From: Platanthera guangdongensis
Lineage: Eukaryota > Streptophyta > Magnoliopsida > Asparagales > Orchidaceae
NCBI GenBank assembly: GCA_039583875.1
Contig: CM077149.1
Span: forward strand, 25,805,194 to 25,869,193
DNA: 64,000 nt
Direction of reading: 5' to 3'
Shown here: in pieces, positions 946 through 63,197 of the stretch
Position numbering within the stretch: the stretch's first letter is position 1
How the letters are laid out: the number at the start of each line of letters is the position of its first letter
Notes under the pieces: generated by a model
Told to the model about the DNA's origin: nothing
The model's input: the letters and a program-made list of their open reading frames with translations, nothing else
Database searches by the model: none
Program-made: the position numbers and the translations under genes

Positions 946-3024
946 ATGGCCCAAAACAAAGATTATGCTAGCACCAGATCTCCAGTGTGCAATCTATCCA
1001 AGTTTGCACTTTGGAAATCAAGGATCAGACTGTACATGAATTCTATTGACGAAGATATTTTTAACTCTGTTTTGATAGTGTATCCAAGACCCCCAGAGAA
1101 CACAAGTACAAATGCTGTTTCACCTCCATCAGGAACAGATGCTGATGTCAAGAGATGGATGGTAGCTGATGCCAAGGCTATGAACATCTTGACCCAGACA
1201 ATGTCTGATGACATATTTCAAAAGGTGGCTGAATGCAATTCAGCAAAGGAAATTTGGGACAAATTCTCAGAAATAGTCTCAGGCTCAGCTGATGAGAGAA
1301 AGGATAGGAGATCCCATCTCATCTCTCAATATGAGAATTTCAAGAAGGGAGAAACTGAGTCAGTGGGAGACATGTACAACAGGATAAGTCTAATTGTCAG
1401 TGAACTCAGGACATTGGACAAAGAGATCTCTCTAACTGAACTCAATGACAAGATCCTAATGTGCTTCCCTAGCACTTGGGATTCAAGAATCTGGCCAATT
1501 AAGGATGCCAGAAGTCTGAATGAGATCACCACTGAAGCTCTATTGGGTAAGCTCAAATCTTATGAGCTACTCATCAAAAATAGAGAAGAAGAACAGAAGG
1601 CTGCCTCACCAGCCACAATAAAAGAGAAGACCATAGCCTTCAAGGCAACTGAGGATCTGCCTGAAGACAAAGCCACAGGCAATGATGAACTACTCAGTCT
1701 GTTGGCCAAAAGATTCTATAAGATGGCCAGAAAGGACTTCAGAAGGAGATCATACAAGGAACATGATAAGCCAAGGTATGACAAGTCCATTAATAATAAT
1801 AATAAAGATATTATCTGCTTTGGTTGCAGGAAATCAAGGAACATAGTTCCTGACTGTCCAGAAAACAAAAACAAGGACAGGAGGGACAGGAAAGAAAGAA
1901 GAAAGGAGAAAGACTCCAAGAGGAATTGCAATGACAAACCCTTATCAAGCAAAAACAAACATACAAGAAAGGGGTTTGTTGCTGAATCCTGGAGTGAGAC
2001 TAAAGAAGAGTCAGAAGCATCATCCAGCTCCAGTGATGTTGAAGATGATGCAGAAGAGAAAGAGTTCTGCATGATGGCAATCAATGCCTCATAGCATAAT
2101 TCAGAAGAAGAGGAGTCAGAGTCAGACTCAGAGACTCAACCTGAAGAAGATCAGGTAATTGGTTCTTTTGATTTTAGTTCAGAGGACTTTAAATCTGAAT
2201 TTAAAGCACTGTGTTTAGACCTGCTAAAGTCTGAGAAAGAAATTATCTCTCTCAGAAATCAATTATCTGAACACAATACTTTAAAGTCAGAAAACCTCAA
2301 ACTCTCTCAGGAGTTGGAGTGCTGTAGGGAGCAGATAGCTTCACTGAAAAGTGAGCTCTCTGATGCCAAGAAGCTTGAAGAATCCCTTAATGGGAGAAGC
2401 ATCAAGCTGATGGACATCACAAGCACAGTGAACTCCAGATTTAACAGTACACTGGGCTTGGGTGCTTCATCCAGCCAACCCATAGTTCTAACAACTCCAA
2501 TCAAATTCATTTCTGGCATAGGAAAGGGAGTTATAGAGGTTGCTAGGAAAAATTCTGATCTGCCCCAGAAAACTAAGTCCCAGCAGAAATCATCGAACGG
2601 AGATCGACGATCGCCAAACGGAGATCGACGATCGCCGAATGCAGATCGACGATCTCAGCCAAAATCGTCGAACACAGGTCGACGATCTCAGGCATAATCG
2701 TCGAACGCAGCTCGACGATCTCAAGTACCTGATCTCAGCCATAGTCGACCATCGAACGGAGCTCGATGATCTGACCCAAGATCGTCGAATGCATCTCCAA
2801 GATCGTCGAACAGAGGTCAGAGCTCTGGAAAATTTTTCAAGGGCAAATCAAAATTGAATCCTAAGGGTCCTTCATCCCAAATCTTTAACCCTTATACTGA
2901 ATGGATTATACCTCCAAGGAGATATCATCCTGAAGGAAATAAGAGTCAACCTGGGATGTCTTTTATTTCAGAATTTAAAGGTTATCAACCTAGGCCCAAG
3001 GTAAACTGGGTCAAAAACAAATGA
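946..3024 (+). pseudogene. gag: gag of copia element A (interrupted)
   Basis: Capsid and nucleocapsid polyprotein. I place the start at ATG 946 (MAQNKDYAS), 24 bases before which no better in-frame start is seen; the same start occurs in copy C. Residues about 20-230 are the UBN2-type gag domain (FALWKSRIRLYMNS, then ELNDKILMCFPSTWDSRIWPIKD). A zinc knuckle follows near residue 300 (CFGCRKSRNIVPDC), but here its His is Asn; copy C keeps CX2CX4HX4C. An acidic Ser/Glu stretch and a palindrome-encoded Ser-Asn-Gly-Asp-Arg-Arg repeat (2590-2818) come next. Two in-frame stops break it: TAG at 2092 and TAA at 2695. The frame otherwise continues to TGA 3022-3024 (PKVNWVKNK, stop), the position where copy C also stops. 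Confidence 0.9.
2590..2818 (+). repeat. ATCGTCGA palindrome array inside gag (A)
   Basis: Units of about 20-30 bp such as ATCGTCGAAC, a few bases, then GATCGACGATC repeat through the coding region. In the gag frame they read as a repeating peptide of the type SSNGDRRSPNGDRRSP; the +1 frame is also open through the array (2540-2857). Copy C has the same array at 56197-56420. It lies between the zinc knuckle and the conserved end of gag. Confidence 0.92.
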
Positions 3025-3025
3025 A

Positions 3026-6275: not shown

Positions 6276-6541
6276 GAACTGCGCTCGACGATTTTCCCCC
6301 AGATCGTCGAACGGAGATCGACGATTTCCGAAATCGTCGAACTGAGTTCAGCGTCTCTCAGATAGTATGAACTATCTCTTCCGGCAACGATCGTCGAATG
6401 GCGCTCGACGATTTTGTTCTTTGAACGATCATCGAACAGAGCTCGACGCTCTCCAATATCGTCGAACGGAGATCGACGATGTTGAAGACTCTTCAGATTC
6501 CTTTAGAAGCCTCAATCGTCGAACTGAGTTCAACGATCTTT
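6276..6541 (+). repeat. ATCGTCGA palindrome array in pol-aORF spacer (A)
   Basis: After the pol stop the spacer carries repeated ATCGTCGAACGGAGATCGACGAT-type units, often as inverted pairs around a GAGCTC or GGAGTT centre. The same array occupies this position in copy C (52447-52738). It ends just before a TATA-like box at 6564. Confidence 0.92.
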
Positions 6542-6563: not shown

Positions 6564-6570
6564 TATAAAA
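6564..6570 (+). promoter_or_regulatory. Candidate TATA box for the aORF (A)
   Basis: TATAAAA sits about 120 bp upstream of the aORF ATG at 6686 and about 25 bp after the palindrome array. The box is conserved in copy C (52435-52441). Between box and ATG lies a pyrimidine-rich leader ending TTTTTGCAG, which could be a splice acceptor. Promoter activity is inference. Confidence 0.5.
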
Positions 6571-6685: not shown

Positions 6686-9600
6686 ATGGCTGTGTCTGTT
6701 GCTGTTCTTGCTGCCATGAAGTTTGATGCTGGTTTCGATATTGACATGGAATCCTTCAGCACAACTGACTAAGCTTTTCAAGATATTTTGGGATTATTCA
6801 AAGACCAGAACCTGACAGCAATAATGACCACAAGGATTAAGCTTGCATCTGATGAGATAAAGGAATGGGTCTACACTGCCCACAATCAAGACAAATCCAC
6901 CATTGTTGGGTCTATATCTGGCACTCAGGTACCCTTGACCCCAGAAATTTTAACAGAAGTTTTTGAGTTGAGAAATGGTGGAGATACTGCTGACTTATCT
7001 GGAGAAGAGTATACTGAACTGCTTGCCAGAATGGGTCATTCAGAGGCCAACCCTAGCAAGCTCTTCAATAGGAACCTTTCTGTGGAATACAGATTCATGG
7101 CAGATGTTGTTGGGAAAGTGCTACTGCCTAAGCACTCTGCCCATAATACAATCTCAAGGTATCAACTCTGCCTCATGGGAGCCCTTGTAGATAAGAAAAA
7201 TCTGAATTGGGGAGAAGTCTTCTTTGACCTTATCAAGAAGAAAATCAACAAAAGTTTTGTCAACTTTGGGAGGATCATTGGGGTGTTTTTGCAGCACAGG
7301 TGCCCTGCTTTGCTGGTCTCCTCTGGAATCCATATTAATGCTTCCAAGAGACTGTCTTGTGCCCTTTTGGAAAGTGGGACAGACAAATCAGCAAACCCAG
7401 CAGGCCCTCCTCCAGCACTCCTTCAGGCACAAGGACTCTAAGAGTCACTTCTCCACAGGTCTCTGCCCCTGTAGATGACCTGCCTGCTATTGTTGCCTCT
7501 CCTCCTCCTCCTCCAATTCCATCCCTTCCCATACCTTCTACCACTCAACCTCCATCCACCATCATCATCTCCAGTCCATCTCCAACATCCACACCATCTC
7601 CAGTACCTACTCTTCCCACACCAGAAGACCACTTCCATCCATTATTCTACTACCCTCAACCAGATGTCACTTCATCACCCTCCCATCCATCCTTCACCCT
7701 CATTGATGATTCCTTTATGGATGATTCACCATCCTCTCCTCCTGAGCTACCCTCATCCTCCACTTCCTATCAAAACCTTCTACAACAAATTATTAATCAA
7801 CCAACATTCATCCCATCTATTTCCATCCCACTGTCCTCCATCTCCACCTTACCCACACCTCAGCCATCCCTTCCAGCATTCACCAGCTCTCCACTACCCT
7901 CACCCTCAGCTGCTCCTACATCTTCTACCTCTGCTCCAGTCACCCTTGAGCAAGTAGACCTCCCAGCCCTTGCTGACAGGTTGTATGAACTGCTAGCCCC
8001 CAGGCTATCACTTCTTCTGGAGACCTCCTTGGCTCCCTTACACCTGTCAGTGACAGCCCTCTCTGCCAGGCTTTCTTCTATATTCCCTCAGGCAGCCCCT
8101 ACAGCAGTGTGCCTTGATCCAACCTTGTTTGAATCTAGGCAGGGGGAGATGCCCTATGAAGTGAGTCTTCCTGTTGCTGCTGTTGCTGCTGCTGTTTCTA
8201 TGAGCCTGTCTGCTGCTGCTGCTGTCATTGCTGCTTCTTCTGCTCCTGCTCTTGCTGTTGTTGCTATGCCTCAAGCACAAATTCCTCCTGCTGTAGTCCT
8301 TGCAATAGACCTCAGGTCTTTGCTATCAAATTTTGATCAGTTTTATTTCAGCTGTCTTTCAGAGATAACTGCTGTCCAGCCTCCAGAGGATCTATCCAAG
8401 GCACTTGTGCCATTTTCCTGCTATGACCCAAGCATCATCACCTCCTTTGTCAATTCAGTGTATGCTGCTGCTTCTTCTGAAGAAAGCATTATTGTTGCTT
8501 CTGATATTGTTATCTCTACTGCTGCTGAAAATGTTGATACTGCTGCTGAAGTTTCTGTTATTACTGTTGAACCAATTTCCAAGGAAATTCTTATGTCAGA
8601 GGCACCTGAGTTTGAGGCTTCTGTAGTTTCTGATGATTTCTCTGCTGTTGTTTCTGCTGTTGTTAGTGAGACTGTTGCTGCTGCTGTCACTTCTCTAGAG
8701 CCTATAGTTGCTGCTGCTATTGTTACTGCTTCTACATCTGCTGTTGCTGTTACATCTGCTGCTATACCATCTGTTGCCTCATCTGCTTCTGTACAGCTCA
8801 AGAAGGTCTTAATGAAGAAAATAGATGCTCTTTATGATGTCCAGAGTTCTGATAGTGATGAGTACAGAACAGACTCTGATGACTCTTCTGCTACCATTGC
8901 CAGGAAAAGAAAGGCAAGGAGCAAAGCGATGAAGAGAGTACCTCCTGCTAAGGTCAAAGATAACAATGATATTCCATACTACATCCTTCATGACTGCCCT
9001 ATTACTGAGCACTGGATGCAATACTCCAAGAACCAACTGAAGGCAATGAAAAAGAAGAGAAAATATGATAAGGGTTCCTCTCAATTCCAACACTCTCATC
9101 CTCCTCGACCACCTCCTCCTGATGCAGGTGCAGGTGGAAGCTCTGCAGCTCAACCCCCAGCCAGAAGTCAGGCCCCCTATCAACCTCATGCTAGATCTTA
9201 TGATAGGGGAAGCCAATCCAGGGGTTCTCAATCAAGGAGAGGAGGATACAGAGGAAATCAAAGAGATCTCCAAGTCTACTCCAAAGGTTACTCCAGGCAA
9301 CACCCATATTCCAGGGGAGGACAAATTTTAACTGATACAACATCTGGTCCTTTCCCCTATAAATTAAGGGAAACTATGTCTTCCAGGCCTCCTCAGGACA
9401 ATCCCTCTAACAGATATAAGCCACCTGTACCTTTTGAGGACCCTGAGAACAATCCAGGTGCTTGGACTGCAAGAATGAAAGAACTAGCTGCACTGGATCA
9501 GATCAAAAAGGCTAGAGAGCAAGGAAAAGATTTCTCCAACATCTCAACAATGTCTGAACAAAGAAAGAAAGAGCTAGAAAGATATGCATCAAGCAAGTTC

Positions 9601-9759
9601 TTTGATTCTGACAAGTATATGGAATTACATCCTGAAGCTATGGTTCCTAGGCCTAAACAGCAAACATCCTTAGGTGCAGCTGATGATACCAGATCAAACA
9701 AAGAAGCCCTCAATCCCAATAGAGAGATTAAACTTGTTAAGGGCAAAGAAAAGAAATGA
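6686..9759 (+). pseudogene. Additional ORF (aORF) of element A, downstream of pol
   Basis: Large extra protein of a SIRE/Maximus-like copia element, function not established. Start ATG 6686 (MAVSVAVLAAMKF) follows the leader and is shared with copy C. Residues about 25-230 form a domain also present in the D aORF (words such as DVVGKVLL, LNWGEVFFDLIKKK, WDRQISKP) and resembling the putative plant transposon protein domain. Then come a Pro/Ser/Thr-rich stretch (about 7450-7960), an Ala/Val/Ser-rich low-complexity stretch coded by GCT/GTT/TCT triplets (8170-8790), basic runs (KRKARSKAMKR, KAMKKKRKY), a poly-Pro tract and an RG-rich segment (about 9200-9260). In-frame TAA near 6770 and a one-base loss near 7366 break it; 7357-9759 is open for 800 codons. 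The Ala/Val block could be mistaken for a membrane segment. Confidence 0.85.
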
Positions 9760-9926: not shown

Positions 9927-11452
9927 TGTTGGAACACCCTATTACTAATTTGGGTCAGGATCACTATGTCTCTAGGAATCAATGCTTGACCTCCTGTATA
10001 GCTCAATAGGTTAATTAGAATTGAGTCTAAGGGTTAGAAGTCTAGGTTTGGAAGCTGCCCTGGAGACCAAGATTTTCTGTTTGGAGACTAATTCATATCG
10101 TCGAGCTTAGCACGACGATTCGTCAAACTTAGATCGACGATCGTCTTGCTCAACTTCGACAGATCGTCGAACTCCATTCGACGATCGCTGAGCTCAACTT
10201 CATTATATCGTCGAACTCCATTTGACGATCGGTGAGCTCAGTTTGATGATCTTGACTCTGCTTTGGATCATTATCTTTGAGCTCAGTTCGACGATCTTTG
10301 AGCTCAGATCGACGATATTTTGCTACTGTATATTTCCAGATCGCTGAGCTCAGTTCGACGATAGCAGAGCTCAGTTCGACGTTTTCAGATAACTTCAAGG
10401 ATGCTTCTAGATTCAAATTCAAATCAGTTAAGGCATTATTCTGCAATTAATTCTGAGGATTTCCTAGCCGTTTTCATTCATTTCTGGACCAAGTTTCAAG
10501 GGATTTTCAAGAAACATTTCTATGGACATTCCTCCAGAAGAGATTTTGCAATTAAGGATGCAATTAATGCAGGCCAACGGCTATACTTGACAGAGAATGT
10601 TATTCTATTCTGTATCAGAGAATAAAAAAGAAGAATTTTTTGAATCAAGAGAGACAGATTACAGAGATACACAGACATACAGACAGACATCAATAATCTT
10701 CAACAAAATCTTTTGTCTCAAAGAATTCTCAAGAACAATCATCCAAGGAGATCAATCTTTTCAGAAATCTTCAGATCTCTTTAGTTTCAAAGTGTTCAAG
10801 GCCAACATATTTCAAGACTGCAGACATTCAACATTTCAGCTATTGTTGAAATCATCTATTGCTGGAGTTCAATCTTTGAAGGTCTATCACCCTCAGCAAA
10901 GCTTTTCTTTCTGAAGATCTCAAGGATTCAGGGGGAGCTTTGACATCAACAATCCACATTGTCTTCTCAGTTGTTTGAGAAAGAGAAGACTGCCATCACT
11001 CTCTCACCCCCTCTCTGTAAAGGGTTTCTCAAACTCCCTTCAAAAGTTTGAGCTTGGTTTTTGAGCACCTTGTCAAAAGCTCATTGGTGGAAAGACACCT
11101 GATCAAAAAATCTGATTTGGTTTTTGAGCACCTTATCAAAAGCTCATTGGTGCCCAGGACACCTGATCAACTCTCCTGCAGTGGATTCCTACCTAGGGTG
11201 GTAGAAGAGTGGATGTACCCAAGATTAGGGGAACCACTATATTTCCTTGTGTCCTCTGGTTTTGCTTGTCTTTATTTTTGTTTCTGGCCTTGATTATTCT
11301 GTGATTAGATTTTGTTTAACTTAGTTCTGTGATTAGATTTTTTAATTGCTTCCCTGCTCACTCTTAGTACAACAATTGTTGTAAAAAGTTTCAAAGCACC
11401 ATATACTCTATTCACCCCCCTCTAGAGTATATCAGATCTAGCTGCACTTTCA
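9927..11452 (+). repeat. 3' LTR of copia element A
   Basis: 1526 bp, beginning TGTTGGAACACCC after the polypurine tract and ending GCTGCACTTTCA. It matches 1-813 over its right half and the LTRs of copy C over its whole length in reverse. It contains the palindrome array at 10097-10383 in the U3 part, an ACAGACAT-rich stretch (about 10660-10690), the 64-bp tandem duplication and the terminal hairpin. To its right the sequence changes abruptly to an unrelated copia fragment. Confidence 0.96.
10097..10383 (+). repeat. ATCGTCGA palindrome array in LTR (A)
   Basis: Inverted pairs such as ATCGTCGAACTCCATTCGACGAT and GAGCTCAGTTCGACGATC recur about every 25-45 bp, with many GAGCTC centres. Each complete unit holds four CpG sites. 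It lies in the left (U3) part of the LTR, the region expected to hold promoter elements. Confidence 0.93.
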
Positions 11453-22754: not shown

Positions 22755-23300
22755 CATGGTACACGCCCTAAGTCACGGGCGTGTACCATGGGCGTATCAG
22801 CACTATTTAACAACTGAATTCGGTGAAGTGATGGATTTGATGGTGATTTGACTTTGCGGCCAAAAACACGGCGGTCGCGCCCCTGTTCACGGGCGTGACG
22901 GTGGGCATGTCGGCACTATTGAGTAGCAGATTTCGGTGACTTGATGGCGATTTGATTTTGCGGCGGAAATCGCGGCGGTCACGCCCCAGGTCACGGGCGT
23001 GACGGTGGGCGTGTCGGGGAGGTTGAAATGGGCGCCGTTTTCATCGAAAGTCATCGGCGGTGGTTTGTCAGGCCAGGTGGAGGAGTCACGCCGCAGGTCA
23101 CGGCGTGACTCTAGGCGTGTTAGGGGTTCTACGATCGTCGAGCGGAATGGACACGGGCTTGGGTCACGCCCCGTGTTGGGTGACACGGGCGTGACGCCAG
23201 GCGTGTCAAGATTTTCTCTTCAAAAATCGTTGATTTCGCTGGAATTTGACGGGTTACGCCCTGGTCACGGGCGTGACCCAAGGAACACGGGCGTGCCCAA
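22755..23300. repeat. GTCACG-CC-CGTGAC palindrome block (J LTR)
   Basis: Many copies of TCACGGGCGTGAC and CACGCCC words, often paired as GCCCnnGGTCACGGGCGTG. The same vocabulary fills element I's LTR (61480-62260) and LTR F (39170-39830). One ATCGTCGAGCGGAA word, the family A motif, sits inside at about 23133. Confidence 0.85.
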
Positions 23301-24168: not shown

Positions 24169-25070
24169 GGTAGCTAACCTCTCAGGCATCAGCCGCCATG
24201 GCCAGGCGGTGACAGTAGAGCGGGCATCTCTACTACTCTGCGGGTATCCACACTACTTCCCCTAGGCCTCCGTACGCCTCAACGCTAAGAACACAACAGC
24301 GGAGCCCATACATACTATGGCCCAGCGGGAGACTCGGGTACATGTGCACCAAGGACCAAGCCCCGAACTGACCTTGTGTGACCCGGAAGGAGCCTTAGAG
24401 TGAGCACGACGACCAAGCCCAACCGTTCACCTGGCACAGAAGGAGCCCCGGGATGTGAACACCGAGTACCAAGCCCAACCGCCCAAAGTCTAACTGTCGA
24501 CTCCCGTCGGTGTGACGACTGGCGAGCCCGTAGACCTGCCACACTATCCTTAACCCAGGATTACGACACCGCGTGTCGACTCACACCCAATTCAAATTCC
24601 ACATCATCGTGATATGGAAGGAGCCTTAGGAAAAAGGCACGAGGACCAAGCCCAACCATCCACCTGTCACGGAAGGAGCCCCGAGACGTGAACACCGCGG
24701 ACCAAGCCCAACCGTCCGTTTGTCTCATCTCAAGCTATCCAAGCTTGCGATGGTCAACACCGCACTTACATCCCTTCCCAATACTACCCGTAGGGAGCCG
24801 ACGCTCTAAGTATTGGACTACTAAATTTCATTCATCAGTCGAACATACACCTGGCCATAATTTATCATCCCATATGACATCCCAAATGATCCAAACATAA
24901 TACATATATGGTGCACATATAATAATCTACCAATTTCTATCAAGTCATTCCGTTCAAGTAATCTTGCATCACAATTCGATTATAAGAGATCTGCTTCCAA
25001 CATGATATAACAAGATATGCATCTATAACAACCTACCAAATTCTATCAAGTAAATTCAATTAAGTAGGCT
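24169..25070 (-). repeat. E-family gypsy LTR F, middle part
   Basis: Matches the E LTR from about 14682 (TAGCTAACCTCT, CTAGGCCTCCGTA, CAACGCTAAGAACACAAC). It contains degenerate tandem units of GACCAAGCCCAACC plus GGAAGGAGCC (24345-24730). It is cut at 25070 by insertion of element D, whose target duplication is AGGCT, and resumes at 37961. Confidence 0.85.
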
Positions 25071-25215
25071 TGTTGGGTACATTGGTTTTAATGTACCTGA
25101 TTTGAAGAAGCCTCACCCTACTCAATGATATACATCAAAATGTATTTGATGTATTTTGAGTTACTTGTGCAGGTTAAGTATTTGCAGGACTGAAGCAAAA
25201 AGTTTCTAAGTCCAT

Positions 25216-26105
25216 GTGTCGACACCCAGAGGGAAAGTGACGACACTTAAGAAGACTTGTGTCGACACCCAGACAAGCAGTGTCGACACTTGGAGTCATT
25301 GTGTCGACACCTGGGATGCAGAGTCGATACCAGACAGAAAGTGTCGACACAAGGAGCTGTGTCGACACTCAGTGAAGAAAAGTGCAGTAAAGTTGTATCG
25401 ACACTTAGCAGCAGTGTCGACACCTAGAAGGACTGTGTCTACACCAGAAAGTGTCGACACTTGGAGCTGTGTCGACACTCAGCAAAAGTTAGCAGAGACT
25501 AAGTATAAGTGTCGACACCCAGAATAATGTGTCGACACTCAACAGAAGAGTCAGCACTTAAAGTAAGTGTCGACACCCAGAACAATGTGTCGACACACAA
25601 CAAAAGAGTCAACACTTAAAGAAAGTGTCGACACATGGAGCTATGTCGACACTTAGCAAAGAACAGCAAGATCAACAAATTATTCTAAGTACAAGTGTCG
25701 ACACTATGGGAATGTGTCGACACTCAGCTGAAGTCTCAACAAGAAGAAGAATGTGTCGACACAAGGAGCTGTGTCGACACTTAGCAAGTATCAACACTGA
25801 AGACATGTGTCGACACCAAGAAGTAGTGTCGACACTTAACAGATTCAACACATGAAGATGTGTCGACACAAAGGAGATGTGTCAACACTTAGAAGAATTC
25901 AGTAAAATACAGAAGATCAAGTACTTGTGTCGACACTCAATTTCAGTGTCGACACATGAAGAAGAAACTGTGTCGAGACATAGAATCTACAACACAAGGA
26001 GTTATGTCGACACCTTGTAGACTTGTGTCGACACTTACACAACTTGTGTCGACACTTGATCTATAAGTGTCGACACTTAAAGACAAAAAGTCTCGACACT
26101 TTCAG
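25216..26105. repeat. TGTCGACAC palindrome array (D, 5' LTR)
   Basis: I count about 28 exact TGTCGACAC words, mostly within the 10-bp palindrome GTGTCGACAC, plus near-misses (GTCTACAC, TCTCGACAC, GTCGATAC, GTCAACAC). Spacers of about 8-30 bp reuse a few words such as AAGGAGCT, TTGGAGCT and CTCAGCAA. It lies in U3 directly upstream of the TATA box. Confidence 0.96.
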
Positions 26106-26233
26106 ACAGTTAGAGAATTTTCAAGAACTGACTGGATGACTTGACAGCTACCGTTCCAGCCGGTCTACAGCACTTGTCAGAGTTGTCAGAAAACAGTTAT
26201 GGACCGGATCAGCCGGTTACCATGAAGAAGGCC

Positions 26234-26242
26234 TATAAATAG
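26234..26242 (+). promoter_or_regulatory. TATA box of D 5' LTR
   Basis: TATAAATAG within GGCCTATAAATAGGC, about 130 bp after the palindrome array and identical in the 3' LTR (37085-37093). Position in U3 before the transcribed segment fits the LTR promoter. Confidence 0.75.
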
Positions 26243-26659: not shown

Positions 26660-26800
26660 TAATTATAAAGGCTGAGTGTAGAGCTTGAGAGCCTGAGTGT
26701 AGGAGATTGAAATCTCTGAGTGTAGGCCTTGGTGGCTGAGTGTAGGCCTTGGTGGCTGAGTGTAGGCCTTTGTGGCTGAGTGTAGGCTTTGTGGAAAAGC
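26660..26800 (+). repeat. Tandem CTGAGTGTAGGCCTT repeats in D LTR
   Basis: At least five imperfect units of about 20-30 bp around GGCTGAGTGTAGGCCTTGGT, repeated identically in arrangement in the 3' LTR (about 37525-37660). The location is downstream of the TATA box, in the transcribed part of the LTR. Confidence 0.85.
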
Positions 26801-27085: not shown

Positions 27086-27107
27086 TTTAGGTACTATATC
27101 TTTCAAG

Positions 27108-37960: not shown

Positions 37961-39169
37961 AGGCTTGCTTCATAATTTGATTATATGGAATCTGATAATC
38001 ACACTACATCAATTAAACAACTAAATTGTTTAATCATAAAAGAGTCCATCTAAGCCTCAAGAAAACTTTCACTATTAATTCACAATTTGTATCTAGTCAA
38101 TTCATTCAATAAGGCTTGCTTCACAATTAGTTATATAAAATCTAATTAACAAGATTCATCATTCATAGCATTACGGTAGTTAGTATGAAATATTTCATCA
38201 AAAACCTCAAGCTAATTTGCAACATTGATTCCTCCGAATCCAAATCCATATTATATAAAAACCCAGAATTTTAAGTGCAGATTGAATCTGGACAGCAACT
38301 TCAACCGGAGATTCCCGAGGCTATAAGAATTCGGAAGAGACGTGTAACCCATCGATGGAAAGGTCGTTTCATGGGTTACAACTTTCATATTCAGCACACA
38401 ACCCAAATTTGAATGTATCCTATTTGAGTTTGGCTTCAAAGTTCGCTGCGCACAGAACACAATTTCTGCATGCAGGATTTATCGGATGTCATTTTCGTCC
38501 AGGCTTTCCTGTGGCTACATACATCGCCTGACATCGTGCAACCATTCGTTGGAAAGGTATTTCCAAGGGCTTCAACTTTCATGTTTAGCCGAAAGCCCAG
38601 ATCTGGACATATCACACCTAAAAATGGCCACAACGTTCGCTGCGCGCAGAATACAGATTCTGCACGCATCTTAAGGCGGAATGAACGACATCGGTTCATC
38701 TTCCTCCTCAAGGCGATCTTCCCAAGTCATTCCAGAAAACCTCCTCCCATATTAAACGTCAAGAGGCCAATACCATTCACGAAACCATCCCCTATCATCA
38801 CATAGAAGAAGGGAGTGGTTGAAGAGATCTAAAACCTAGGACACAAGTCCTAGCATGGCCTTTCCTAGAAAACTCCTCCTCTCCATCAAGACTCTCTTGA
38901 GTCTATGTCTCGCCTAGGAAAATAACTATAGATCTAGCACCAAGGGAGAGGGTAGGAAACTCACATCATTTCCAGCGGTTCCATTTCTGGCGATAGACCT
39001 TGTGATTCTTCGCGGCCGCATCCTCTCCTTTATGCCGATGGCAGATCTCCTTCCCTATATCTTCCTCGACCAAACTCTCCTTCTCCACAGGACTTCTCTC
39101 AGAAAAATACGGCTGGGAAGAAGAGTGAACTGGCTAGGGTTTTTCCACTGTTCCTTATATATATAATGT

Positions 39170-39420
39170 GACACGGGTAGGGACACGCCCGTGTCCTTTA
39201 CCGTGTCCCGCTCGGGCAAAGCGTTACAGGCGGTTACGTTGTTAGTTCGATCTATAATGGCGGATAGGTCGTACACGCCCGTGTCAGTCAAGTCATGCCC
39301 GTGACATGGGGCGTGACACCTAAATCGTCGAACTCAACTATCGAGAATTTGTCGAACTCACTTAAAATCGTCGAACGGAGAACACGCACGTGACGTAGGG
39401 CGTGTAACCCTCTCACTCAG
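39170..39420. repeat. Mixed palindrome block in LTR F
   Basis: CACGCCCGTG words are interspersed with ATCGTCGAACTCA, TTGTCGAACTCA and ATCGTCGAACGGAG, the latter being the family A/C copia motif, within a gypsy LTR. Confidence 0.85.
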
Positions 39421-39830
39421 GAACCAACCACCTACTCGAGTTCCTTCGGCACCTACTCGAGTATCTTAAGTCACGACCCTAGGTCACGCCCGTGACCCCG
39501 GGCGTGTAACCCACCTTACTTGAGTACTTTGAAAACTACTCGAGTAATCTCGGCAGGTACTCGAGTACCTTTAGTCACGCCCCTGGGTCACGCCCGTGAC
39601 GCAGGGCTTGTAACTCACTTTACTCGAGTATTTTGAAAACTACTCGAGTAACCTCGACAGCTACTCGAGTACCTTCAGTCACGCCCCTGGGTCACGCCCG
39701 TGACCCAGGGCGTGTAACCCACTTTACTCGAGTACTTTGAAAACTACTTGACTAACCTCGGAAGCTACTCGAGTACCTTCAGTCACGCCTCTGGGTCACG
39801 CCCGTGACCCAGGGCGTGCAACCTGATCTG
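39421..39830. repeat. 104-bp tandem repeat, about four units (LTR F)
   Basis: The word AGTCACG(C/A)C starts at 39469, 39573, 39677 and 39781, exactly 104 bp apart. Each unit holds two or three TACTCGAGTA words and one long inverted repeat, CACGCCCCTGGGTCACG with CGTGACCCAGGGCGTG around CC. Confidence 0.93.
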
Positions 39831-47578: not shown

Positions 47579-49109
47579 TGAAAGTGCAGCTAGATCTGAT
47601 ATACTCTAGAGGGGGGGGGGGGGTGAATAGAGTATATGGTGCTTTGAAAGTTTTTACAACAATTGTTGTAATAAGAGTGAGCAGGGAAGCAGTAAATAAA
47701 ACTAACCACGACACTAAGTAAAACAAAAACTAAGCACAGAAGAATCAAGGCCAAAAACAAAAATGAAAACAAGCAAAACCAGAAGACACAAGGAAATATA
47801 GTGGTTCCCCTAACTTGGGTACATCCACTCTTCTACCACCCTAGGTAGGAATCCACTGCAGGATGAGTTGATCAGGTATCCTGGGCACCAATGAGCTTTT
47901 GATAAGGTGCTCAAAAACCAAGGCAAATTTTTTGATCAGGTGTCTTTCCACCAATGAGCTTTTGACAAGGTGCTCAAAAACCAAGCTCAAACTTTTGAAG
48001 GGAGTTTGAGAAACCCTTTACAGAGTGGGGGTGAGAGAATGATGGAAGTATTCTCTTTCTCAAACAACTGAGAAAACTATGTGGATTGTTGATGTCAAAG
48101 CTCCCCCTGAATCCTTGAGATCTTCAGGAAGAAAAACTTTGCTGAGGGTGATAGGCCTTCAAAGATTGAACTCCAGCAATAGATGATTTCAGCAATAGCT
48201 GAAATGTTGAATGTCTGGAGTCTGGAAATATGTTGGACTTGAACACTTTGAAGACTAAGGAGATCTAAAGATTTGAGAAGGCTTGATCTCCTTGGATGTG
48301 TGTTCTTCAGAATTCTTTTGTGACAGAAGATTTTTGAATGCTTCTCTGTAATTTGTATCCTCTCTCTGTATTGTGTGTGTTCTATATGAGAGATTAAAAA
48401 AAAATCCTGTCTTTTATTCTGGTAGAGAATAGAATAACATTCTCTGTCAAGTATAGCCGTTGGCCTGCATTAATTGCATCCTTAATTGCATAATATCTTC
48501 TGGAGGAAAGTACACAGATACATTCCTTGAAAAATCCCTTGAAACTTGGTCCAGAATTGAATGATAACGGCTAGGAAATCTCTGAATTAATTGCAGAATA
48601 ACTCCTAACTGATTTGAATTTGAATTAAGAAATATTCTGGAAGTTGTCTGAAATCGTCGAACTGAGCTCTGCTATCGTCGAACTGAGCTCAGCGATCTGG
48701 AAATATACATCAGCAAAATATCGTCGATCTGAGCTCAAAGATCGTCGAAGTGAGCTCAGAGATAAAGTTCCAAAGCAGAGTCAAAATCGTCGACCTAAGC
48801 TCACCGATCATCGAGTGGAGTTCGACGATATGATGAAGTTGAGCTCAGCGATCGTCGAACGGAGTTCGACGATCTGTCGAAGTTGAGCTAGACGATCGTC
48901 GATCGGAGTTCGACGAATCGTCGTGCTGAGCTCGACGATATGACTTAGTCTCCAAACACAAAATCTTGGTCTTCAGGGCAGCTTCCAAACCTAGACTTCT
49001 AACCCTTAGACTCAATTCTAATTGACCTAAAAAGCTATACAGGAGGTCAAGCAAAGGTTCCTAGAGACACAGTGATCCTGACCCAAATTAGTAATAGGGT
49101 GTTCCAACA
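47579..49109 (-). repeat. 3' LTR of copia element C
   Basis: 1531 bp, reverse complement of the family A LTR, from TGAAAGTGCAGC to GTTCCAACA. The partner is 58247-59766; I count about 38 substitutions by eye (about 2.5 percent) plus a G-run of 13 versus 7 near the end and an A-run difference. The preceding bases GGCAG equal those after 59766. Array at 48652-48940. Confidence 0.96.
48652..48940. repeat. ATCGTCGA palindrome array in C 3' LTR
   Basis: Reverse counterpart of 10097-10383. It includes the perfect pair ATCGTCGAAC...GTTCGACGAT at about 48850-48873 (11-bp arms with flanking G/C, 3-bp centre) and many ATCGTCGA...GAGCTC combinations. Confidence 0.93.
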
Positions 49110-49278: not shown

Positions 49279-52200
49279 TCATTTCTTCTCTTTGCCCTTA
49301 ACCATTTTAATTTCTTTGTTAAGATTTAGGGCTTCCTTCTTAGATCTGCTGTCATCTGCTGTACCTAAAGATGTCTGCTGTTTAAGCCTGGGAAGCACTG
49401 CTTCAGGGTGTAATTCCATGTATCTGTCAGCATCAAAGAATTTACTTGAACCATATCTCTCTAGTTCTTTTTGTCTCTGCTCAGACATCGTAGAAATGTT
49501 GGAAGAATCTAATCCTTGTTCTCTGGCCTTTTTAATTTGGTCCAGTGTAGCTAATTCCTTTAACCTTGCAGTCTAAGCAGCTGGATTATTTTCAGGGTCC
49601 TCATAAGGTACAGGTGGCTCATACCTGTTGGAGGGGTTGTCTTGAGAGGGCCTGGCAGACACAGTTTCTTTTAGCTTGTAAGGGAAAGAGCCAGATGTTG
49701 TATCAGTTGAAGTTTGTCTTTCCCTGGAATATGGGTGCTGCCTGGAGTAGCCTTTAGAATAGACTTGAATATCTCTCTGATTACCCCTATATCCTTCTCT
49801 CTTAGAATGTGAACCCCTGGATTGGCTTTCCCTGTGGTAAGATCTGGCATGAGGTTGATAGGGAGCCTGACTTCTGACTGGGGGTTGACTTGCAGAGCTT
49901 CCACCTGCACCTGCATCAGGAGGAGGTGGTGGAGGAGGATGAGAGTGCTGGAATTGGGATGAACCCTTCTCATATTTTCTCTTTTTCTTCATTGCTTTTA
50001 GCTGGTTCTTGGAATACTGCATCCAGTGTTCAGTGATTGGGCAATCATGTAGAATGTAATAAGGGATATCATTGTTATCTTTAACTTTAGCAGGAGGTAC
50101 CCTTTTCATAGCCTTGCTCCTTGCCTTTCTTTTCCTGGCAATGGTAGCAGAAGAATCATCAGAGTCTGTTTTAAATTCATCAGATTCAGAGCTCTGGTTA
50201 TCATAGAGAGCATCTATTTTCTTCATCAAGTCCTTTTTGAGTTGTTCAGAAGCAGATGAGGCAGAAGTTGAAACAGCAGCAGCAGGTGTTGAGATGGTAA
50301 TAGCAGGGACAGTAGCAGATGGAGAAGGTGAAGCAGAAACAACAACAGCAACAGCAGTAGGTTCTGGAGAGGTGATAGCAGCAACAACTTCACTAACAAC
50401 AGAAGAAACAGAAGATTCACTATCAGCAACAGAAACAGAAGGAGCATCATCAAAGACTGCAGAAGGCTCAAATTCAGTTGCCTCTGACATCAGAATGTCC
50501 TTGGAAGATGGTTCATCAGAAACAGTAGGAACTTCAGCAGCAGCAGCAGCAGCAGTAATTACTGAATTTACAAAGGAAGTGAGGATGCTAGGGTCACAAC
50601 AAGAAAAAGGCACAAGTGCCTTGGATAAGTCTTCTGGAGGCTGGATAGCATGGACCTCTGGCAGACAGCTGAAGAAGGCAGAATCAAAAGCTGATAGCAA
50701 AGACCTGAGGTCTATTGCAAGAACTGCAGTTGAACTCTGACTTTCTGGAGGCACAGCAACTGGAGGAGCAGCAGAAGAAGCAGAACTGACAACAGCAGCA
50801 GACAGAGAGCTTGCAGAAACAGCAGCAACAACAGCATGAAGATTCTCTTCATATGGCATCTCCCCCTACCTAGATGCAGACAGGTCTGGATCATGGCACA
50901 CTGATGTAGGTGCTGCCTGAGGGAAGAGGGAAGAGAGCCTGGCAGAAAGGGCTGCCACTGATAGGTGTAGAGGAGCAAGGGAGGTCTCCAACAGTAGAGA
51001 GGGCCTGGGGGCAAGCAGCTCACACAGCTGTCAGCAAGGGCTGAGAGGTCTACTTGCTCAAGAGCTGGAGCAGAGGTAGAAGGTATGGAAGCAGCTGAAG
51101 GTTATGGAAGTGGAGAGCTGGAGAATGGTGGAAGGGATGGCTGAGGTGTTGGTAGGGTGGATATGGAGGATAGGGGAAGGGATATGGATGGGGTGAAAGT
51201 TGGTTGATCAATGATGTGGTGTAGGAGGTCTTGAAATGAAGTGGAGGAGGAGGGTAGCTCTGGAGGAGATGATGGGGAATCATCCATAAAGGAATCATCC
51301 AGTAGGGTGAAGGATGGAATGGAGGGTGAGGAGGTCACATCTGGTGGAGGGTAGGAGAACAGTGGGTGGAATTGGTCTAATGGTGGATGTAGGATAGGTT
51401 CTGGAGAAGGTGTTGATGTTGGAGATGGGCTGGAGATGATGATGGTGGATGGAGCTGGAATGGTGGATGGTAGGGGAAGGGATGGAATTGGAGGAGGAGG
51501 AGGAGAAGCAGCAGCAGCAGCCAGGTCATCTGCAGGGGCAGAGACCTGTGGAGAAGTGTCTCTTTGAGTCCTTGTACCTCAAGGAGCACTGGAGGAGGGC
51601 CTGTTAGGCTTGCTTATTTGCCTATCCCACTTTCCAAAGAGGGCACAGGTCAGTCTCTTGGAGGCATTGATATGAACTCTAGAGGAGACCAGCAAGGCAG
51701 GACACCTGTGATGCAGAAATACTCTAATAATTCTCCCAAAATTAACAAAACTTTTGTTTATTTTCTTTTTGATGAGGTCAAAGAAAACCTCTCCCCAGTT
51801 CAGATTTTTCTTATCCACAAGAGCTCCCATGAGACAGAGCTGATGTCTGGATATTGTATCATGGGCTGAGTGCTTTGCCAGTAGCACTTTCCCCACCACA
51901 TCTGCCATGAACCTGTATTCAACAGACAGGTTCCTTTTGAAGAGCTTGCTAGGGTTTCCCTCTGGATGACCCATCCTGGCAAGCAGTTCAGAATATTCTT
52001 CTCCAGATTGCTCAGCAGAATCTTCTCCATTTCTCAATTCAAAAACTTCTGAGAGAATGGTTGGGGTCAAGGGTACCTGATTTCCAGCAATAGTCCCAAC
52101 TATTGTAGAGTTATCTTGATTATGGGCAGTATAAACCCACTCCTTGATCTCATCAGTAGCCAGCTTGATCCTGGTGGTCATTATAGCAGTCAGATTCTGA

Positions 52201-52319
52201 TCCTTGAACAAACCCAGTATATCTTGAAAAATCTGATCAGTCGTGCTGAAGGATTCTATATCAATGTCAAAACCGGCATCAAACTTCATTGCAGCAAGAA
52301 CAGCAACTGACACAGCCAT
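49279..52319 (-). pseudogene. Additional ORF (aORF) of element C (broken)
   Basis: Second copy of the family A extra protein. Start ATG at 52319 (MAVSVAVLAAMKFDAGF), and the N-terminal domain is open to 51579, including residues where A has a stop. A stop at 51579, a frame change between about 51100 and 50860, and a TAG at about 49573 break it. The segment 50859-49573 carries the Ala/Val-rich, basic and poly-Pro parts; 49488-49279 is the Lys-rich C-terminus. Together with A it shows that the frame was once continuous. Confidence 0.85.
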
Positions 52320-52434
52320 TGTACCTGCAAAAACTCAACAACCAAAACGACCAAGCGTAGAACTGTTTGGAGGGAAAGGAAAAAATCTTGCAGAGAAATC
52401 GAAAGCGCAAAAGAGAACGACGGCGAAAAAAGAG

Positions 52435-52446: not shown

Positions 52447-52738
52447 GTTCGACGCAGAATTGGAAAAATCGTTGAACTCAGTTCGACGATCGAGGCTTCT
52501 AAAGGAATCTGAAGAGATTTCAACATCGTCGATCTCCGTTCGACGATATTGGAAAGCGTCGAGCTCCGTTCGACGATCGTTCAGAGAACAAAATCGTCGA
52601 GCGCCGTTCGACGATCGTTGACCGGAAGAGATAGTTCACACTATCTGAGAGGCGCTGAACTCAGTTCGATGATTTTTGGAAATCGTCGATCTCCGTTCGA
52701 CGATCTTAGGGCAAATCGTCGAGCGCAGTTCAGCGATC
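52447..52738. repeat. ATCGTCGA palindrome array in C pol-aORF spacer
   Basis: Units such as ATCGTCGATCTCCGTTCGACGAT recur, homologous in position to 6276-6541 but with different point substitutions. Confidence 0.92.
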
Positions 52739-55983: not shown

Positions 55984-58059
55984 TCATTTATTTTTGACCC
56001 AGTTTACCTTGGGCCTAGGTTGATAACCTTTAAATTCTGAAATGAAATACATCCCAGGTTGACTCTTATATCCTTTAGGATGATATCTCCTTGGAGGTAT
56101 AATCCATTCAGTATAAGGGTTAAAGATTTGGGATGTAGGACCCTTAGGATTCAATTTTGATTTGCCTTTGAAAAATTTTCCAGAGCTCTGACCTATGTTC
56201 GACGATCTGTGAGCTGCGTTCGACGATCTTGGGTCAGATCGTCGAGCTCCGTTCGACGGTCGACTATAGCTGAGGTCAGGTATTTGAGATCGTCGACCTG
56301 CGTTCGACGATGTTGCTTGAGATCATCGATCTGCGTTTGACGATTTTGCCTGAGATCGTCGAGCTGCGTTCGGCGATCGTCGATCTTCATTCGGCGATCG
56401 TCGATCTCCGTTCGACGATATATGCTGGGACTTAGTTTTCTGAGGCAGATCAGAATTTTTCCTAGCAACCTCTACAACTCCCTTTCCTTTGTCAGAAATG
56501 AATTTGATTGGAGTTGTTAGGACTATAGGTTGGCTGGATGAAGCACCCAAGCCCAGTGTACTGTTGAATCTGGAGTTCACTGTGCTTGTGATATCCATCA
56601 GCTTGATGCTTCTCCCATTGAGGGATTCTTCAAGCTTCTTGGCCTCAGAGAGCTCACTTTTCAATGAAGCTATCTGTTCCCTACAACACTCCAACTCCTG
56701 AGAGAGTTTGAGGTTTTCTGACTTTAGAGTATTGTGTTCAGATAATTGATTTCTGAGAGAGATAATCTCTTTCTCAGACTTTAGCAGGTCTAAACACAGT
56801 GCTTTAAATTCAGATTTAAAATCTTCTGAACTAAAATCAAAAGAACCAATTACCTGATCTTCTTCAGGTTGAGTCTCTGAGTCTGACTCTGACTCTTCTT
56901 CCTCTGAATTGTGCTGAGAGGCATTGATTGCCATCATGCAGAACTCCTTTTCTTCTACATCATCCTCATCATCACTGGAGCTGGATGAGGCTTCTGACTC
57001 TTCTTCTGTCTCACTCCAGTATTCAGCAACAAACCCTTTTCTTGTATGCTTGTTTTTGCTTGAAGAAGGTTTTCCATTGCCATTCCTTTTGGAGTCTTTC
57101 TCCTTTCTTCTTTCTTTTCTGTCCCTTCTGTCCTTGTTCTTGTTCTCTGGACAGTCAGGAACTATGTGCCCTGGTTTCCTGCAACCAAAGCAAATAATGT
57201 CTTTATTAATACTAATGGACTTGTCATACCTTGGCTTATCCTGCTCCTTGTATGATCTTCTTCTGAAGTCCTTTCTGGCCATTTTGTAGAATCTTTTGGC
57301 CAGCAAGCTGAGTAGTTCATCATTGCCTGTGGCTTTGTCTTCAGGCAGATCTTCAGTTGCTTTAAATGCTATGGTCTTCTCTTTTCTTGTGGCTGGTGAG
57401 GCAGCCTTCTGTTCTTCCTTTCTATTTTTGATGAGTAGCTCATAAGATTTGAGCTTACCCAATAGAGCTTCAGTGGTGATCTCATTTAGACTTCTGGAAT
57501 CCTTAATTGGCCAGATTCTTGAATCCCAAGTGCTGGGGAAGCACATTAGGATCTTGTCATTAAGTTCTGTTAGAGAGATCTCTTTGTCTAATGTCATGAG
57601 TTCAATGACAATTAGACTTAGTTTGTTGTACATATCTCCCACTGACTCAGTTTCTCCCTTCTTGAAATTCTCATATTGAGAGATGAGATGGGATCTTCTA
57701 TCCTTTCTCTCACCAGCTGAGCCTGAGACTATTTCTGAGAGTTTGTCACAAATTTCCTTGGCTGAATTACATTCAGCTACCTTTTGAAATATGTCATCTG
57801 ACATTGTCTGGGCTAGGATATTCATAGCCTTAGCATCAGCTACCTTCCATCTCTTGATGTCAGCATCTGTTCCTGATGGAGGTGGCACATTATTTGTGCT
57901 TGTATTCTCTGGGGGTCTTGGACATACTGTCAAAACAGAATTAAAGATATCTTCATCAATAGAATTCATGTAGAGACTAATCCTTGCTTTCCAAAGTGCA
58001 AACTTGGATAGATTGTACGCTGGAGGTTTGGTGCTAGCATAATCATTGTTTTGGGCCAT
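55984..58059 (-). pseudogene. gag: gag of copia element C (one stop in the palindrome array)
   Basis: Start ATG 58059 (MAQNNDYAST). The gag domain and intact zinc knuckle CFGCRKPGHIVPDC are open down to 56323, where a CGA-to-TGA change inside a palindrome unit stops the frame. The same frame continues to TGA 55986-55984 (NWVKNK, stop), the position used in A. The Ser/Glu-rich acidic stretch follows the knuckle. Confidence 0.9.
56197..56420. repeat. ATCGTCGA palindrome array inside gag (C)
   Basis: Counterpart of 2590-2818. In the gag frame it reads as SSNGDRRSPNEDRRS-type repeats. Arm substitutions differ from copy A, but repeat number and frame are nearly preserved (3 nt overall difference between gag start and pol start). 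Confidence 0.92.
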
Positions 58060-58244: not shown

Positions 58245-58246
58245 AT

Positions 58247-59766
58247 TGAAAGTGCAGCTAGATCTGATATACTCTAGAGGGGGGGTGAATAGAGTATATG
58301 GTGCTTTGAAAGTTTTTACAACAATTGTTGTAATAAGAGTGAGCAGGGAAGCAGTAAATAAAACTAACCACAACACTAAGTAAAACAAAAACTAAGCACA
58401 GAAGAATCAAGGCCAAAAATAAAAATGAAAACAAGCAAAACCAGAAGACACAAGGAAATATAGTGGTTCCCCTAACTTGGGTACATCCACTCTTCTACCA
58501 CCCTAGGTAGGAATCCACTGCATGATGAGTTGATCAGGTGTTCTGGGCACCAATGAGCTTTTGATAAGGTGCTCAAAAACCAAGGCAGATTTTTTGATCA
58601 GGTGTCTTGCCACCAATGAGCTTTTGACAAGGTGCTCAAAAACCAAGCTCAAACTTTTGAAGGGAGTTTGAGAAACCCTTTAAAGAGTGGGGATGAGAGA
58701 ATGATGGAAGTCTTCTCTTTCTCAAACAACTGAGAAGACTATGTGGATTGTTGATGTCAAAGCTCCCCCTGAATCCTTGAGAACTTCAGGAAGAAAAGCT
58801 TTGCTGAGGGTGATAGGCCTTCAAAGATTGAACTCCAGCAATAGATGATTTCAGCAATAGCTGAAATGTTGAATGTCTGGAGTCTGGAAATATGTTGGCC
58901 TTGAACACTTTGAATACTAAGGAGATCTAAAGATTTGAGAAGGCTTGATCTCCTTGGATGTGTGTTCTTCAGAATTCTTTTGTGACAGAAGATTTTTGAA
59001 TGCTTCTCTGTAATCTGTATCCTCTCTCTGTATTGTGTGTGTTCTATATGAGAGAAAAAAATCCTGTCTTTTATTCTGGTAGAGAATAGAATAATATTCT
59101 CTGTCAAGTATATTCGTTGGCCTGCATTAATTCCATCCTTAATTGCATAATCTCTTCTGGAGGAAAGTCCACAGATATATTCTTTGAAAAATCCCTTGAA
59201 ACTTGGTCCAGAATTGAATGATAACGGCTAGGAAATCTCTGAATTAATTGCAGAATAACTCCTAACTGATTTGAATTTGAATTAAGAAATATCCTGGAAG
59301 TTGTCTGAAATCGTCGAACTGAGCTCTGCTATCGTCGAGCTGAGCTCAGCGATCTGGAAATATACAGCAGCAAAATATCGTCGATCTGAGCTCAAAGATC
59401 GTCGAACTGAGCTCAGAGATAAAGTTCCAAAGCAGAGTCAAAATCGTCGACCTAAGCTCACCGATCGTCGAGTGGAGTTCGACGATATGAAGAAGTTGAG
59501 CTCAGCGATCGTCGAACGGAGTTCGACGATCTGTCGAAGTTGAGCTAGACGATCGTTGATCGGAGTTCGACGAATCGTCGTGCTGAGCTCGACGATATGA
59601 CTTAGTCTCCAAACACAAAATCTTGGTCTTCGGGGCAGCTTCGAAACCTAGACTTCTAACCCTTATACTAAATTCTAATTGACCTATTAAGCTATACAGG
59701 AGGTCAAGCAAAGGTTCCTAGAGATACAGTGATCCTGACCCAAATTAGTAATAGGGTGTTCCAACA
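58247..59766 (-). repeat. 5' LTR of copia element C
   Basis: 1520 bp, partner of 47579-49109. Followed by GGCAG, the target duplication. Array at 59309-59597; terminal hairpin at the left end with a G7 run in place of G13. Confidence 0.96.
59309..59597. repeat. ATCGTCGA palindrome array in C 5' LTR
   Basis: Same array as 48652-48940, with a handful of arm substitutions between the two. Confidence 0.93.
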
Positions 59767-61282: not shown

Positions 61283-63197
61283 TGATAAGTCATTATTTAT
61301 AGTGGTTTTTATATAGTTTTTATTTAATAAATAGTCAGGTTTCTGTTTAGTTTTTATTATTTTTTTAATTAATTCCCTTGTTTTCTTATTTCAGGTCAAT
61401 CTGGGCGGCCAATATCAAAATGGAGCATGCTAGGCTAATCAAAAGAACAAACAGAGAATTCCTTGAAAAATCACGTTTACACGCCCCTATCACAGGCATG
61501 ACCTTCAGGTCACGGGCGTGACAGGTGGCCGTGTCCCATAAAGGAGGCTCCAGAGCACATTCCACATCAGATTAAAGTTACACGCCCCGGTCACGGGGAT
61601 GACATATGGGTCACGAGCGCTACCAACAGGCATGAGCAGCATGCGTGACTAGTAGAAGGAGGCCAAAAGTCAGTTCCAGACAATTTTCGGCATACACGCC
61701 CCGGTCATGAGCGTGACTTTTGGATCACGGACGTGACCTCCGAGCGTGACACCTAGGAGAGAAGAACGTCGACCATAAATCGTCGAATAGCGAACGAAGA
61801 GCCTTGACACACCCGTGACATTCCCTGTGCTACGCCATCCTTGGGGTGTCCCATAGGCGAGAAACCAAGAACTAGCATCGTCGATCGAAGAACGTCGATC
61901 AGCCATGTACACGCCTAGGTCACGTGCGTGACACCGGGAGTGTTAGGAGAATTTTCCAGCCAAAAATAGTCGTTCCTGCCATTGCCGCCAAATTTCAGTT
62001 TCCAGCTTTACACGCCCTTGTCACGGGCATGTTTACGGGGCGTGATGCCTCCATCAACAACATTTTATTCCCGCCGTCTTCAGCTTCCCGCCATTTTCTA
62101 GAAATAAATCTGACATGCCCTAGGTCACGGGCATGACCTAGGGGCGTGACCCATCATTTAATAGATTTTGGAGGTTTCTCCTCCAATGTTCCCGGGCTTT
62201 CAAGATGACGGTTCCAACCCTTACACGCCCAAGGTCACGGGCGTGACCTGCAAGAGAAAATTCTAGAAATTCCAGAAATCTGAAGGAGACCAGAGGAAGA
62301 TCTAGGGAGCCAAATCTAGGAGTAGTTCTTAGCCAGTATTAGTAGTTTATTTTCTTATCTTCCTTGTACTCTTCAAGTCATAGTTTAATTTTGCCTTTGT
62401 TAATTCCAATTCATAGTGTAACTTTTATTTTTGTTTTTCAAGTCTTTTTTTGTTAATCATGTCTCTCTCCTCCCTTTTTTGTAGTTCTCCCATCATGATG
62501 AGTAGCTAAACTTCTTTTAGCACTTGATCATGATGAACCTTGTAATAAAATAGGCTTTTCAACTTTATTAAAAATGTCAGGTTCTTTACTTTACTCACTA
62601 ACGATTTATCTTTGATTTATATTGTATTGAATTCATATTTTGCGGATATGTTCTTCGATCTAAGATCCATATCCTAAATGACCGAGAGGTTGTATATACG
62701 AGTATATAGATCAAAGATAAAAGAGGTTGCATGCACTCCTCGAGAGAGGATGACATAAATCTTCCGGATTGGAGTCAAATCCAATATAGGGCTTCACCAC
62801 ATAAAGCAAGGTTAGGGGTTTCGACTGGCTGAGTGGTCGTAATCGATCAACCTAAGGTTAATCAAAAGCATGAGCTCAAGAGAGACGCTTTTTGTACTTT
62901 AGGAACCTCCACGGTCGGGTGAGCAATTTAAGAGTCTTGCGTACTTTATGTTCATAAAAGTTCATTTTAATCCAAGTGGATTATAGATCAAGTGCTACCT
63001 TTTATTTTGTTTTCTAGCTATAGTTTAAATTAACTCATTTTATTATTTGATAAAATAATATTAATTTGTGTGAGTATAAGTAATCAACAGGCCCCGAGTC
63101 TAATACGACATTTCCTATACTATATTTTGATAGGTGCACTTGCCTATTTGGGATTATAGTTTGGATACATTTTTAAAACTATAGAAATTCTCCATCA
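61283..63197 (+). repeat. 5' LTR of Tat/Athila-type gypsy I
   Basis: 1915 bp from TGATAAGTCATTATTT to ATTCTCCATCA, followed by AGTTTTTGGCGCTGTTGCC. GATAGGTGCACTTGCC near 63130 is shared, reversed, with J. Palindrome words at 61480-62260. The element continues past the window end. Confidence 0.85.
61480..62260. repeat. GTCACG-CC-CGTGAC palindrome block (I LTR)
   Basis: Many TCACGGGCGTGAC and ACACGCCC words, most as GCCCnnGGTCACGGGCGTGAC. At 61765-61905 ATCGTCGAATAG, ATCGTCGATCGAAG and AACGTCGATC words of the copia A/C type are mixed in. Confidence 0.88.

What the first reader, a model, noticed from the sequence alone, without database searches (positions are those of the whole stretch)
2590..62260. 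Several CpG-containing palindrome vocabularies fill LTRs of unrelated retrotransposons
At least six short self-complementary words occur as dispersed arrays: ATCGTCGA/TCGACGAT (A, C), TGTCGACAC (D), GTCACG-CC-CGTGAC (F, I, J), TACTCGAGTA (F), CGACGAATTCGTCG-like (E) and CTACTC-n4-GAGTAG (J). They span copia, chromovirus and Tat/Athila lineages. All but the core of the last contain CpG at the centre of symmetry or in the arms. Shared design (short palindrome, variable 8-40 bp spacers, non-coding or LTR location) with different words is not explained by common descent of the elements. Possible causes are dimeric transcription-factor sites, symmetric CG methylation targets, or a palindrome-generating mutational process during reverse transcription.
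Basis: partly seen in the sequence, partly recalled or inferred. Interest (0 to 1): 0.88.

Follow-up and report, generated by a model that had tools for sequence, protein, structure and literature searches.

The report
Phased DNA-word arrays with regulator genes
Retrotransposons in a large, probably orchid, genome carry dense arrays of short symmetric DNA words in their promoters and in front of an extra gene whose product may resemble a DNA-binding anti-silencing protein, which suggests that they carry their own regulator together with its binding sites.

Summary
The arrays are real and genome-wide: GTGTCGACAC occurs 2,076,908 times in the 4.25-Gb host genome (reversed control 2,228), and 10 of 19 sampled loci hold arrays (reversed words 0 of 19). 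The "six vocabularies" are uneven: two palindromes supply 79 of 82 central-CpG 10-mers.

Copia arrays (elements A, D and a reverse-strand A relative, Arev) resemble Sirevirus RM boxes: palindromes in the LTR and before an extra ORF (PMC2829016). New here: 18-22-bp phasing, a TATA box between internal array and ORF, and a similar layout in L008, whose ORF has an ATHILA-family match. TCGTCGA also occurs in 25 of 29 CACG-type arrays. CACG arms covary within arrays (0/5000; weaker in replication, 223/5000).

Best reading: operator arrays for two promoters, probably bound by the element's own protein. Binding is untested.

The parts
1..813 (+). Element A, part of 5' LTR (cut by window start)
   Evidence: 96.8% identical to 10633-11452; PBS TGGTATCAGAGC at 816
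2596..2830 (+). Element A, ATCGTCGA-type array at the gag/pol junction, partly in the gag frame
   Evidence: frame
6285..6540 (+). Element A, internal (linker) array of ATCGTCGA half-sites
6564..6570 (+). TATA box TATAAAA, about 24 bp after the linker array
6686..9759 (+). Element A extra ORF region (ATG 6686; frame broken in this copy, searched in pieces), PF20167-like N-terminal domain below the curated cut-off
9927..11452 (+). Element A 3' LTR
10097..10382 (+). Element A LTR array of ATCGTCGA half-sites
25070..27107 (+). Element D 5' LTR (97.9% to 3' LTR); PBS at 27108
25216..26110 (+). Element D LTR array of GTGTCGACAC; TATAAATA at 26234
32422..32868 (+). Element D internal array of GTGTCGACAC, dense to about 32750; TATAAATA at 32796; two more words lie beyond the TATA
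32902..35619 (+). Element D extra ORF (905 aa), PF20167-like N-terminal domain (sub-threshold), KKKRK at residue 252
35921..37962 (+). Element D 3' LTR with GTGTCGACAC array 36067-36928
39283..39823 (+). Array F: GTCACGCCCGTGAC and TACTCGAGTA on a 104-bp tandem unit, plus two ATCGTCGAAC (39324, 39367); gypsy domains follow at 41036-43255
   Evidence: domains
22770..23290 (.). GTCACG/CGTGAC array with one ATCGTCGA; no element assigned
61480..62250 (.). GTCACG/CGTGAC array with two ATCGTCGA; no element assigned
47579..49109 (-). Element Arev (A family, reverse strand) 3' LTR with array 48653-48941
52483..52724 (-). Element Arev internal array; TATAAAA at 52441, ATG at 52319
51582..52334 (-). Element Arev, PF20167-like domain piece that was modelled; top PDB fold match VANC21
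56199..56421 (-). Element Arev gag/pol-junction array, overlapping the end of the gag ORF
58247..59766 (-). Element Arev 5' LTR with array 59310-59598

Best explanation
The arrays are cis-regulatory operator arrays of LTR retrotransposons. In the copia elements they sit in the LTR and again directly before an internal TATA promoter for an extra ORF that follows pol. That ORF encodes a protein with basic clusters and an N-terminal domain that resembles VANC21 in a predicted model; it probably binds the element's own word array as a dimer and keeps both promoters active or unsilenced. Shown here: arrays, phasing, the order array-TATA-ATG, the subfamily's word beside the subfamily's protein, and a fold resemblance. 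Inferred: binding, dimerisation, any effect on transcription or methylation. CACG-type arrays, which lie by gypsy genes where genes were found, share the TCGTCGA half-site and, in one element with an ATHILA-family ORF, a similar layout; their arm complementarity is a second feature, best read as DNA-level arm copying or selection on self-pairing.
Confidence: 0.5

Rival explanations
1. Host transcription factors, not element proteins, bind the words; unrelated lineages converged on the same host sites.
For: TCGTCGA 92 times in 29 CACG-type arrays (25 of 29) against 6.0 shuffled; GTGTCGACAC 17 (12 of 29) against 0.10. Known RM boxes matched stress-related factor sites in the PLACE database (PMC2829016 section 9).
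Against: Does not by itself explain why the word changes with the protein subfamily, though that is one contrast.
Confidence: 0.25
2. The arrays act as hairpins or cruciforms (small-RNA or recombination effects), or are left by a palindrome-perfecting copying process.
For: Arm covariation within CACG-type arrays: 243 of 462 against 197.3 (0 of 5000), replication 153 of 343 against 140.1 (223 of 5000); hairpin energy real against swapped arms -23.45 vs -21.04 (0/400) and -20.86 vs -20.14 (6/400). In maize, small RNAs map in excess to palindromic Sirevirus regions (PMC10760457 passages).
Against: GTGTCGACAC flanks are less complementary than permuted ones. No G-T excess in the transcript strand: 15 G-T against 23 A-C. 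The discovery arrays were chosen after inspection; the replication is weak.
Confidence: 0.15
3. Plain tandem-repeat expansion with no function.
For: TRF reports 104-bp, 58-bp and 40- to 63-bp repeats over parts of several arrays.
Against: Words stay exact while spacers carry almost no shared information; the same word recurs in separate places of one element.
Confidence: 0.05

Closest known systems
Sirevirus repeated motif (RM) boxes (Bousios et al. 2010, PMC2829016; section 9 and passages seen)
   Same: Palindromic words with CpG, many copies, clustered in the LTR upstream of TATA and upstream of the ENV-like ORF; linker copies go with that ORF.
   Different: Core here is TCGA, not CGG-CCG; an internal TATA lies between linker array and ORF (that paper could not conclusively identify such a promoter); phasing; a gag/pol-junction array; similar words by gypsy genes, while that paper calls the RM Sirevirus-specific.
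VANDAL / VANC anti-silencing (Hosaka et al. 2017, PMC5735166; passages seen)
   Same: Transposon-encoded protein; short target motifs accumulated in the element's own non-coding parts; motifs that differ between related families; possible fold resemblance to VANC21.
   Different: VANDALs are DNA transposons (passage in PMC12844716); here LTR retrotransposons. VANC21 motif is YAGTATTAY. No binding or demethylation shown here; no sequence match.
Maize Copia palindromes and miRNA-like structures (PMC10760457; passages seen)
   Same: Palindromes concentrated in Copia LTRs.
   Different: [quoted passage not shown] here inverted-repeat arrays lie by gypsy genes.

Membership tests
Sirevirus RM-box element | Copia-type gag and RT | tested here: met
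   PF14223 and PF07727 in A, D, Arev
Sirevirus RM-box element | At least eight palindromic words, in LTR and in linker before the extra ORF | tested here: met
   (for A the word is a half-site in inverted pairs)
Sirevirus RM-box element | CGG-CCG core | tested here: not met
   A and D words lack it; the paper itself lists Tnd-1 without it
Sirevirus RM-box element | TATA box after the LTR array | tested here: inconclusive
   Met in D (157 bp), not found for the A-family LTRs
Sirevirus RM-box element | RT phylogeny and multiple PPTs | not tested
   no tree or PPT scan was made
VANC anti-silencing system | VANC fold of the encoded protein | tested here: inconclusive
   [not shown]
VANC anti-silencing system | Sequence relation to VANC21 | tested here: inconclusive
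   Profile A4 against PDB sequences did not list it up to E 10
VANC anti-silencing system | Family-specific motif arrays in the element's own non-coding parts | tested here: met
   one A array is partly coding
VANC anti-silencing system | Protein binds motif and removes methylation | not testable with these tools
   needs bench data
Retroviral-type envelope | Transmembrane segment in the extra ORF | tested here: inconclusive
   Hydropathy only: D ORF maximum 1.55 over 19 residues; A and Arev pieces up to 2.15 and 1.72 in Ala-rich stretches; KKKRK in D, A and Arev

The most novel reading that the evidence does not exclude
The 'envelope-like' ORF of these Sirevirus-type elements is a VANC-related anti-silencing regulator and RM boxes are its target sites: LTR retrotransposons, perhaps of more than one lineage, carry a self-encoded regulator with co-evolving DNA words.
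Probability: 0.3. Interest if true: 0.9.

Novelty: new variant of a known kind. Interest (0 to 1): 0.7.

Why it matters
It would give a function to the unexplained extra ORF and RM boxes of Sireviruses, extend sequence-specific anti-silencing from DNA transposons to LTR retrotransposons, and help to explain how one word reached two million copies in a genome. A 2026 paper says that whether ORFs encoded by other LTR lineages modulate their epigenetic state remains to be investigated (PMC12844716, passage).

Tried and rejected
Structure of the whole D ORF: too poor to use. Viral fold library: no match with E up to 0.001, best probabilities about 0.1. Profile comparison of the L008 ORF with the domain set A4: no support (hhalign Prob column 0.3, E 0.19), and the domain HMM did not hit it at E 1e-3, so the link of that ORF to this domain rests on a weak Pfam hit to PF20167. 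RNA folding z-scores are low in all array types (means -2.9 to -4.3 against -1.1 and -0.5 in controls), but repeated complementary words force that, so they do not separate the models. Two-copy divergence of words against spacers: uninformative. A G-U test for RNA selection: none found. No paper describing this combination was seen in the search listings; that is not proof of absence, and Bousios 2016 and Sasaki 2022 are not held. Genome searches for GACACGGCCGTGTC and family PF20167 did not complete, so no genome-wide count is given for them.

Full report
1. Where it is. The window is G000:C3:25805194-25869193 of an unnamed 4,245,561,818-base genome in 274 contigs. The seven protein matches of the D extra ORF (E up to 0.001; only the 7,990 candidates sharing most words were scored) are all from the orchid genus Platanthera, so the host is probably an orchid; this is inference.

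2. Elements. Self-comparison, PBS search and Pfam give three copia elements. A (+) has its 3' LTR at 9927-11452. D (+) has LTRs 25070-27107 and 35921-37962, 97.9% identical. Gypsy-type domains lie around 17465-18886 and 41036-43255; no lineage was assigned by phylogeny.

3. Is the observation more than chance? Yes for D and F, weaker elsewhere. Window 10-mer palindromes: 172 against 65.1, maximum 81 of 20 shuffles; central-CpG 82 against 6.8, of which GTGTCGACAC 71 and TACTCGAGTA 8. Local inverted-repeat counts are well above all 100 shuffles in three D arrays and F, but not above the shuffle maximum in the seven A-type arrays, E, the CTACTC block, 22760-23300 or 61480-62250; two of five control stretches pass their maximum by one. 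A-type arrays hold a half-site in inverted pairs, which that count misses.

4. Genome scale. GTGTCGACAC 2,076,908 sites, control 2,228; ATCGTCGAAC 324,577 on both strands, control 8,382; GTCACGCCCGTGAC 81,441 on both strands, control 1. Of 19 stretches at round coordinates (145 kb) 10 hold at least one array (five copies of a word, gaps up to 200), 8,000 of 145,000 bases, against 0 of 19 for reversed words. The words were chosen partly after seeing this sample, so the rate is descriptive.

5. Two designs. GTGTCGACAC: flank complementarity at positions 1-4 is 0.30, 0.17, 0.20, 0.19 against 0.37, 0.31, 0.28, 0.29 permuted in 135 sites; of 163 nearest-neighbour distances 106 are 18-22 bp and 28 are 34-42 bp. 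CACG-type arrays: arms outside the core covary within arrays in 66 sites of 12 arrays (0 of 5000 permutations), weaker in 49 sites of 16 arrays from 17 new loci (223 of 5000). Per array in the discovery set, permutations reaching the observed value were 3 (L008), 13 (L025), 63 (window F) and 69 (L021) of 2000; in the other eight 183 to 2000. L008 shows five units with five different arms, each complementary over 7-11 bases. Hairpin energies with swapped arms agree (0/400 in 64 sites, 6/400 in 45).

6. Which elements hold CACG-type arrays. Gypsy-type domains were found in the same locus in six cases: F in the window, L008 (ATHILA family), L015, L021, L025 and L026. The others, including the 17 loci and two window blocks, are grouped by their words alone. 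TCGTCGA: 92 in the 29 arrays (25 of 29) against 6.0 shuffled; GTGTCGACAC: 17 (12 of 29) against 0.10; GCGGACT: 0 against 2.8. So the vocabularies cross lineages.

7. Internal promoter and extra ORF. Array, TATA and ATG occur in that order in A (array end to TATA 24 bp), Arev (42) and D (46, with two further words beyond the TATA) (the A ATG is at 6686). In L008 CCCTATAAATAGGGTTTT follows the array and an ATG comes about 100 bases later, in an ORF with PF03078 (E 2.1e-7) and sub-threshold PF20167 (E 3e-4). That this array is internal is inferred: two groups of seven words with the same spacing lie 12.6 kb apart with this group between them. L021 has a degenerate array and no TATA by the same scan. 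Bousios 2010 says that such a promoter could not be conclusively identified (passage).

8. The protein. The D, A and Arev ORFs carry KKKRK; D has no strongly hydrophobic segment. The N-terminal domains of the A and D families are homologous (E 2e-21). A model from seven sequences (pLDDT 61.6, pTM 0.63) has VANC21 on DNA as best PDB match; the sequence search did not find it. Strong copies of the domain in window and fetched loci (L002-L007 left out as overlapping): six, all with an array upstream, four with TCGTCGA (A, Arev, L021, L012; 54-83% identical to Arev) and two with TGTCGACA (D, L016; 69%), while across subfamilies identity is 22-29%. One weak hit (L026) has none, and the L008 ORF is not hit at E 1e-3.

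9. CpG. Transition forms: CpG 104,938 (control 18,987), non-CpG 56,619 (control 4,484). After subtracting controls the ratio is about 1.65, and CpG-decayed copies are about 4% of intact ones. This gives no sign of rapid loss of the central CpG, but there were no methylation data and no CpG baseline.

10. Verdict. Real arrays; a new variant of Sirevirus RM boxes with an internal promoter, with related words by gypsy genes, and a plausible but unproven self-encoded VANC-like binder.

Noticed in passing
2596-2830 and 56199-56421: A third ATCGTCGA array lies at the gag/pol junction and is partly read in the gag frame (repeats like SSNGDRRSPN).
   Followed up: partly
L014:7812-8579: A sampled array of GCGGACT, nearly all in one orientation (CAGTCCGC 12 of 13), with TATAAAT 78 bp after it and a PBS at 9366: a half-site form of the CGGAC signature.
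   Followed up: no
26716-26791 and 37571-37646: A 20-bp tandem repeat CTGAGTGTAGGCCTTGGTGG, 3.8 copies, 94% matches, in the D LTRs.
   Followed up: no
23814-24134: A reverse-strand piece matches RVT_1 (E 6.1e-14), beside the 22770-23290 array.
   Followed up: no
32796 and L008:2149: TATA boxes of the putative internal promoters in D and L008 are followed by AGGGTTTT, a telobox-like context (name recalled).
   Followed up: no
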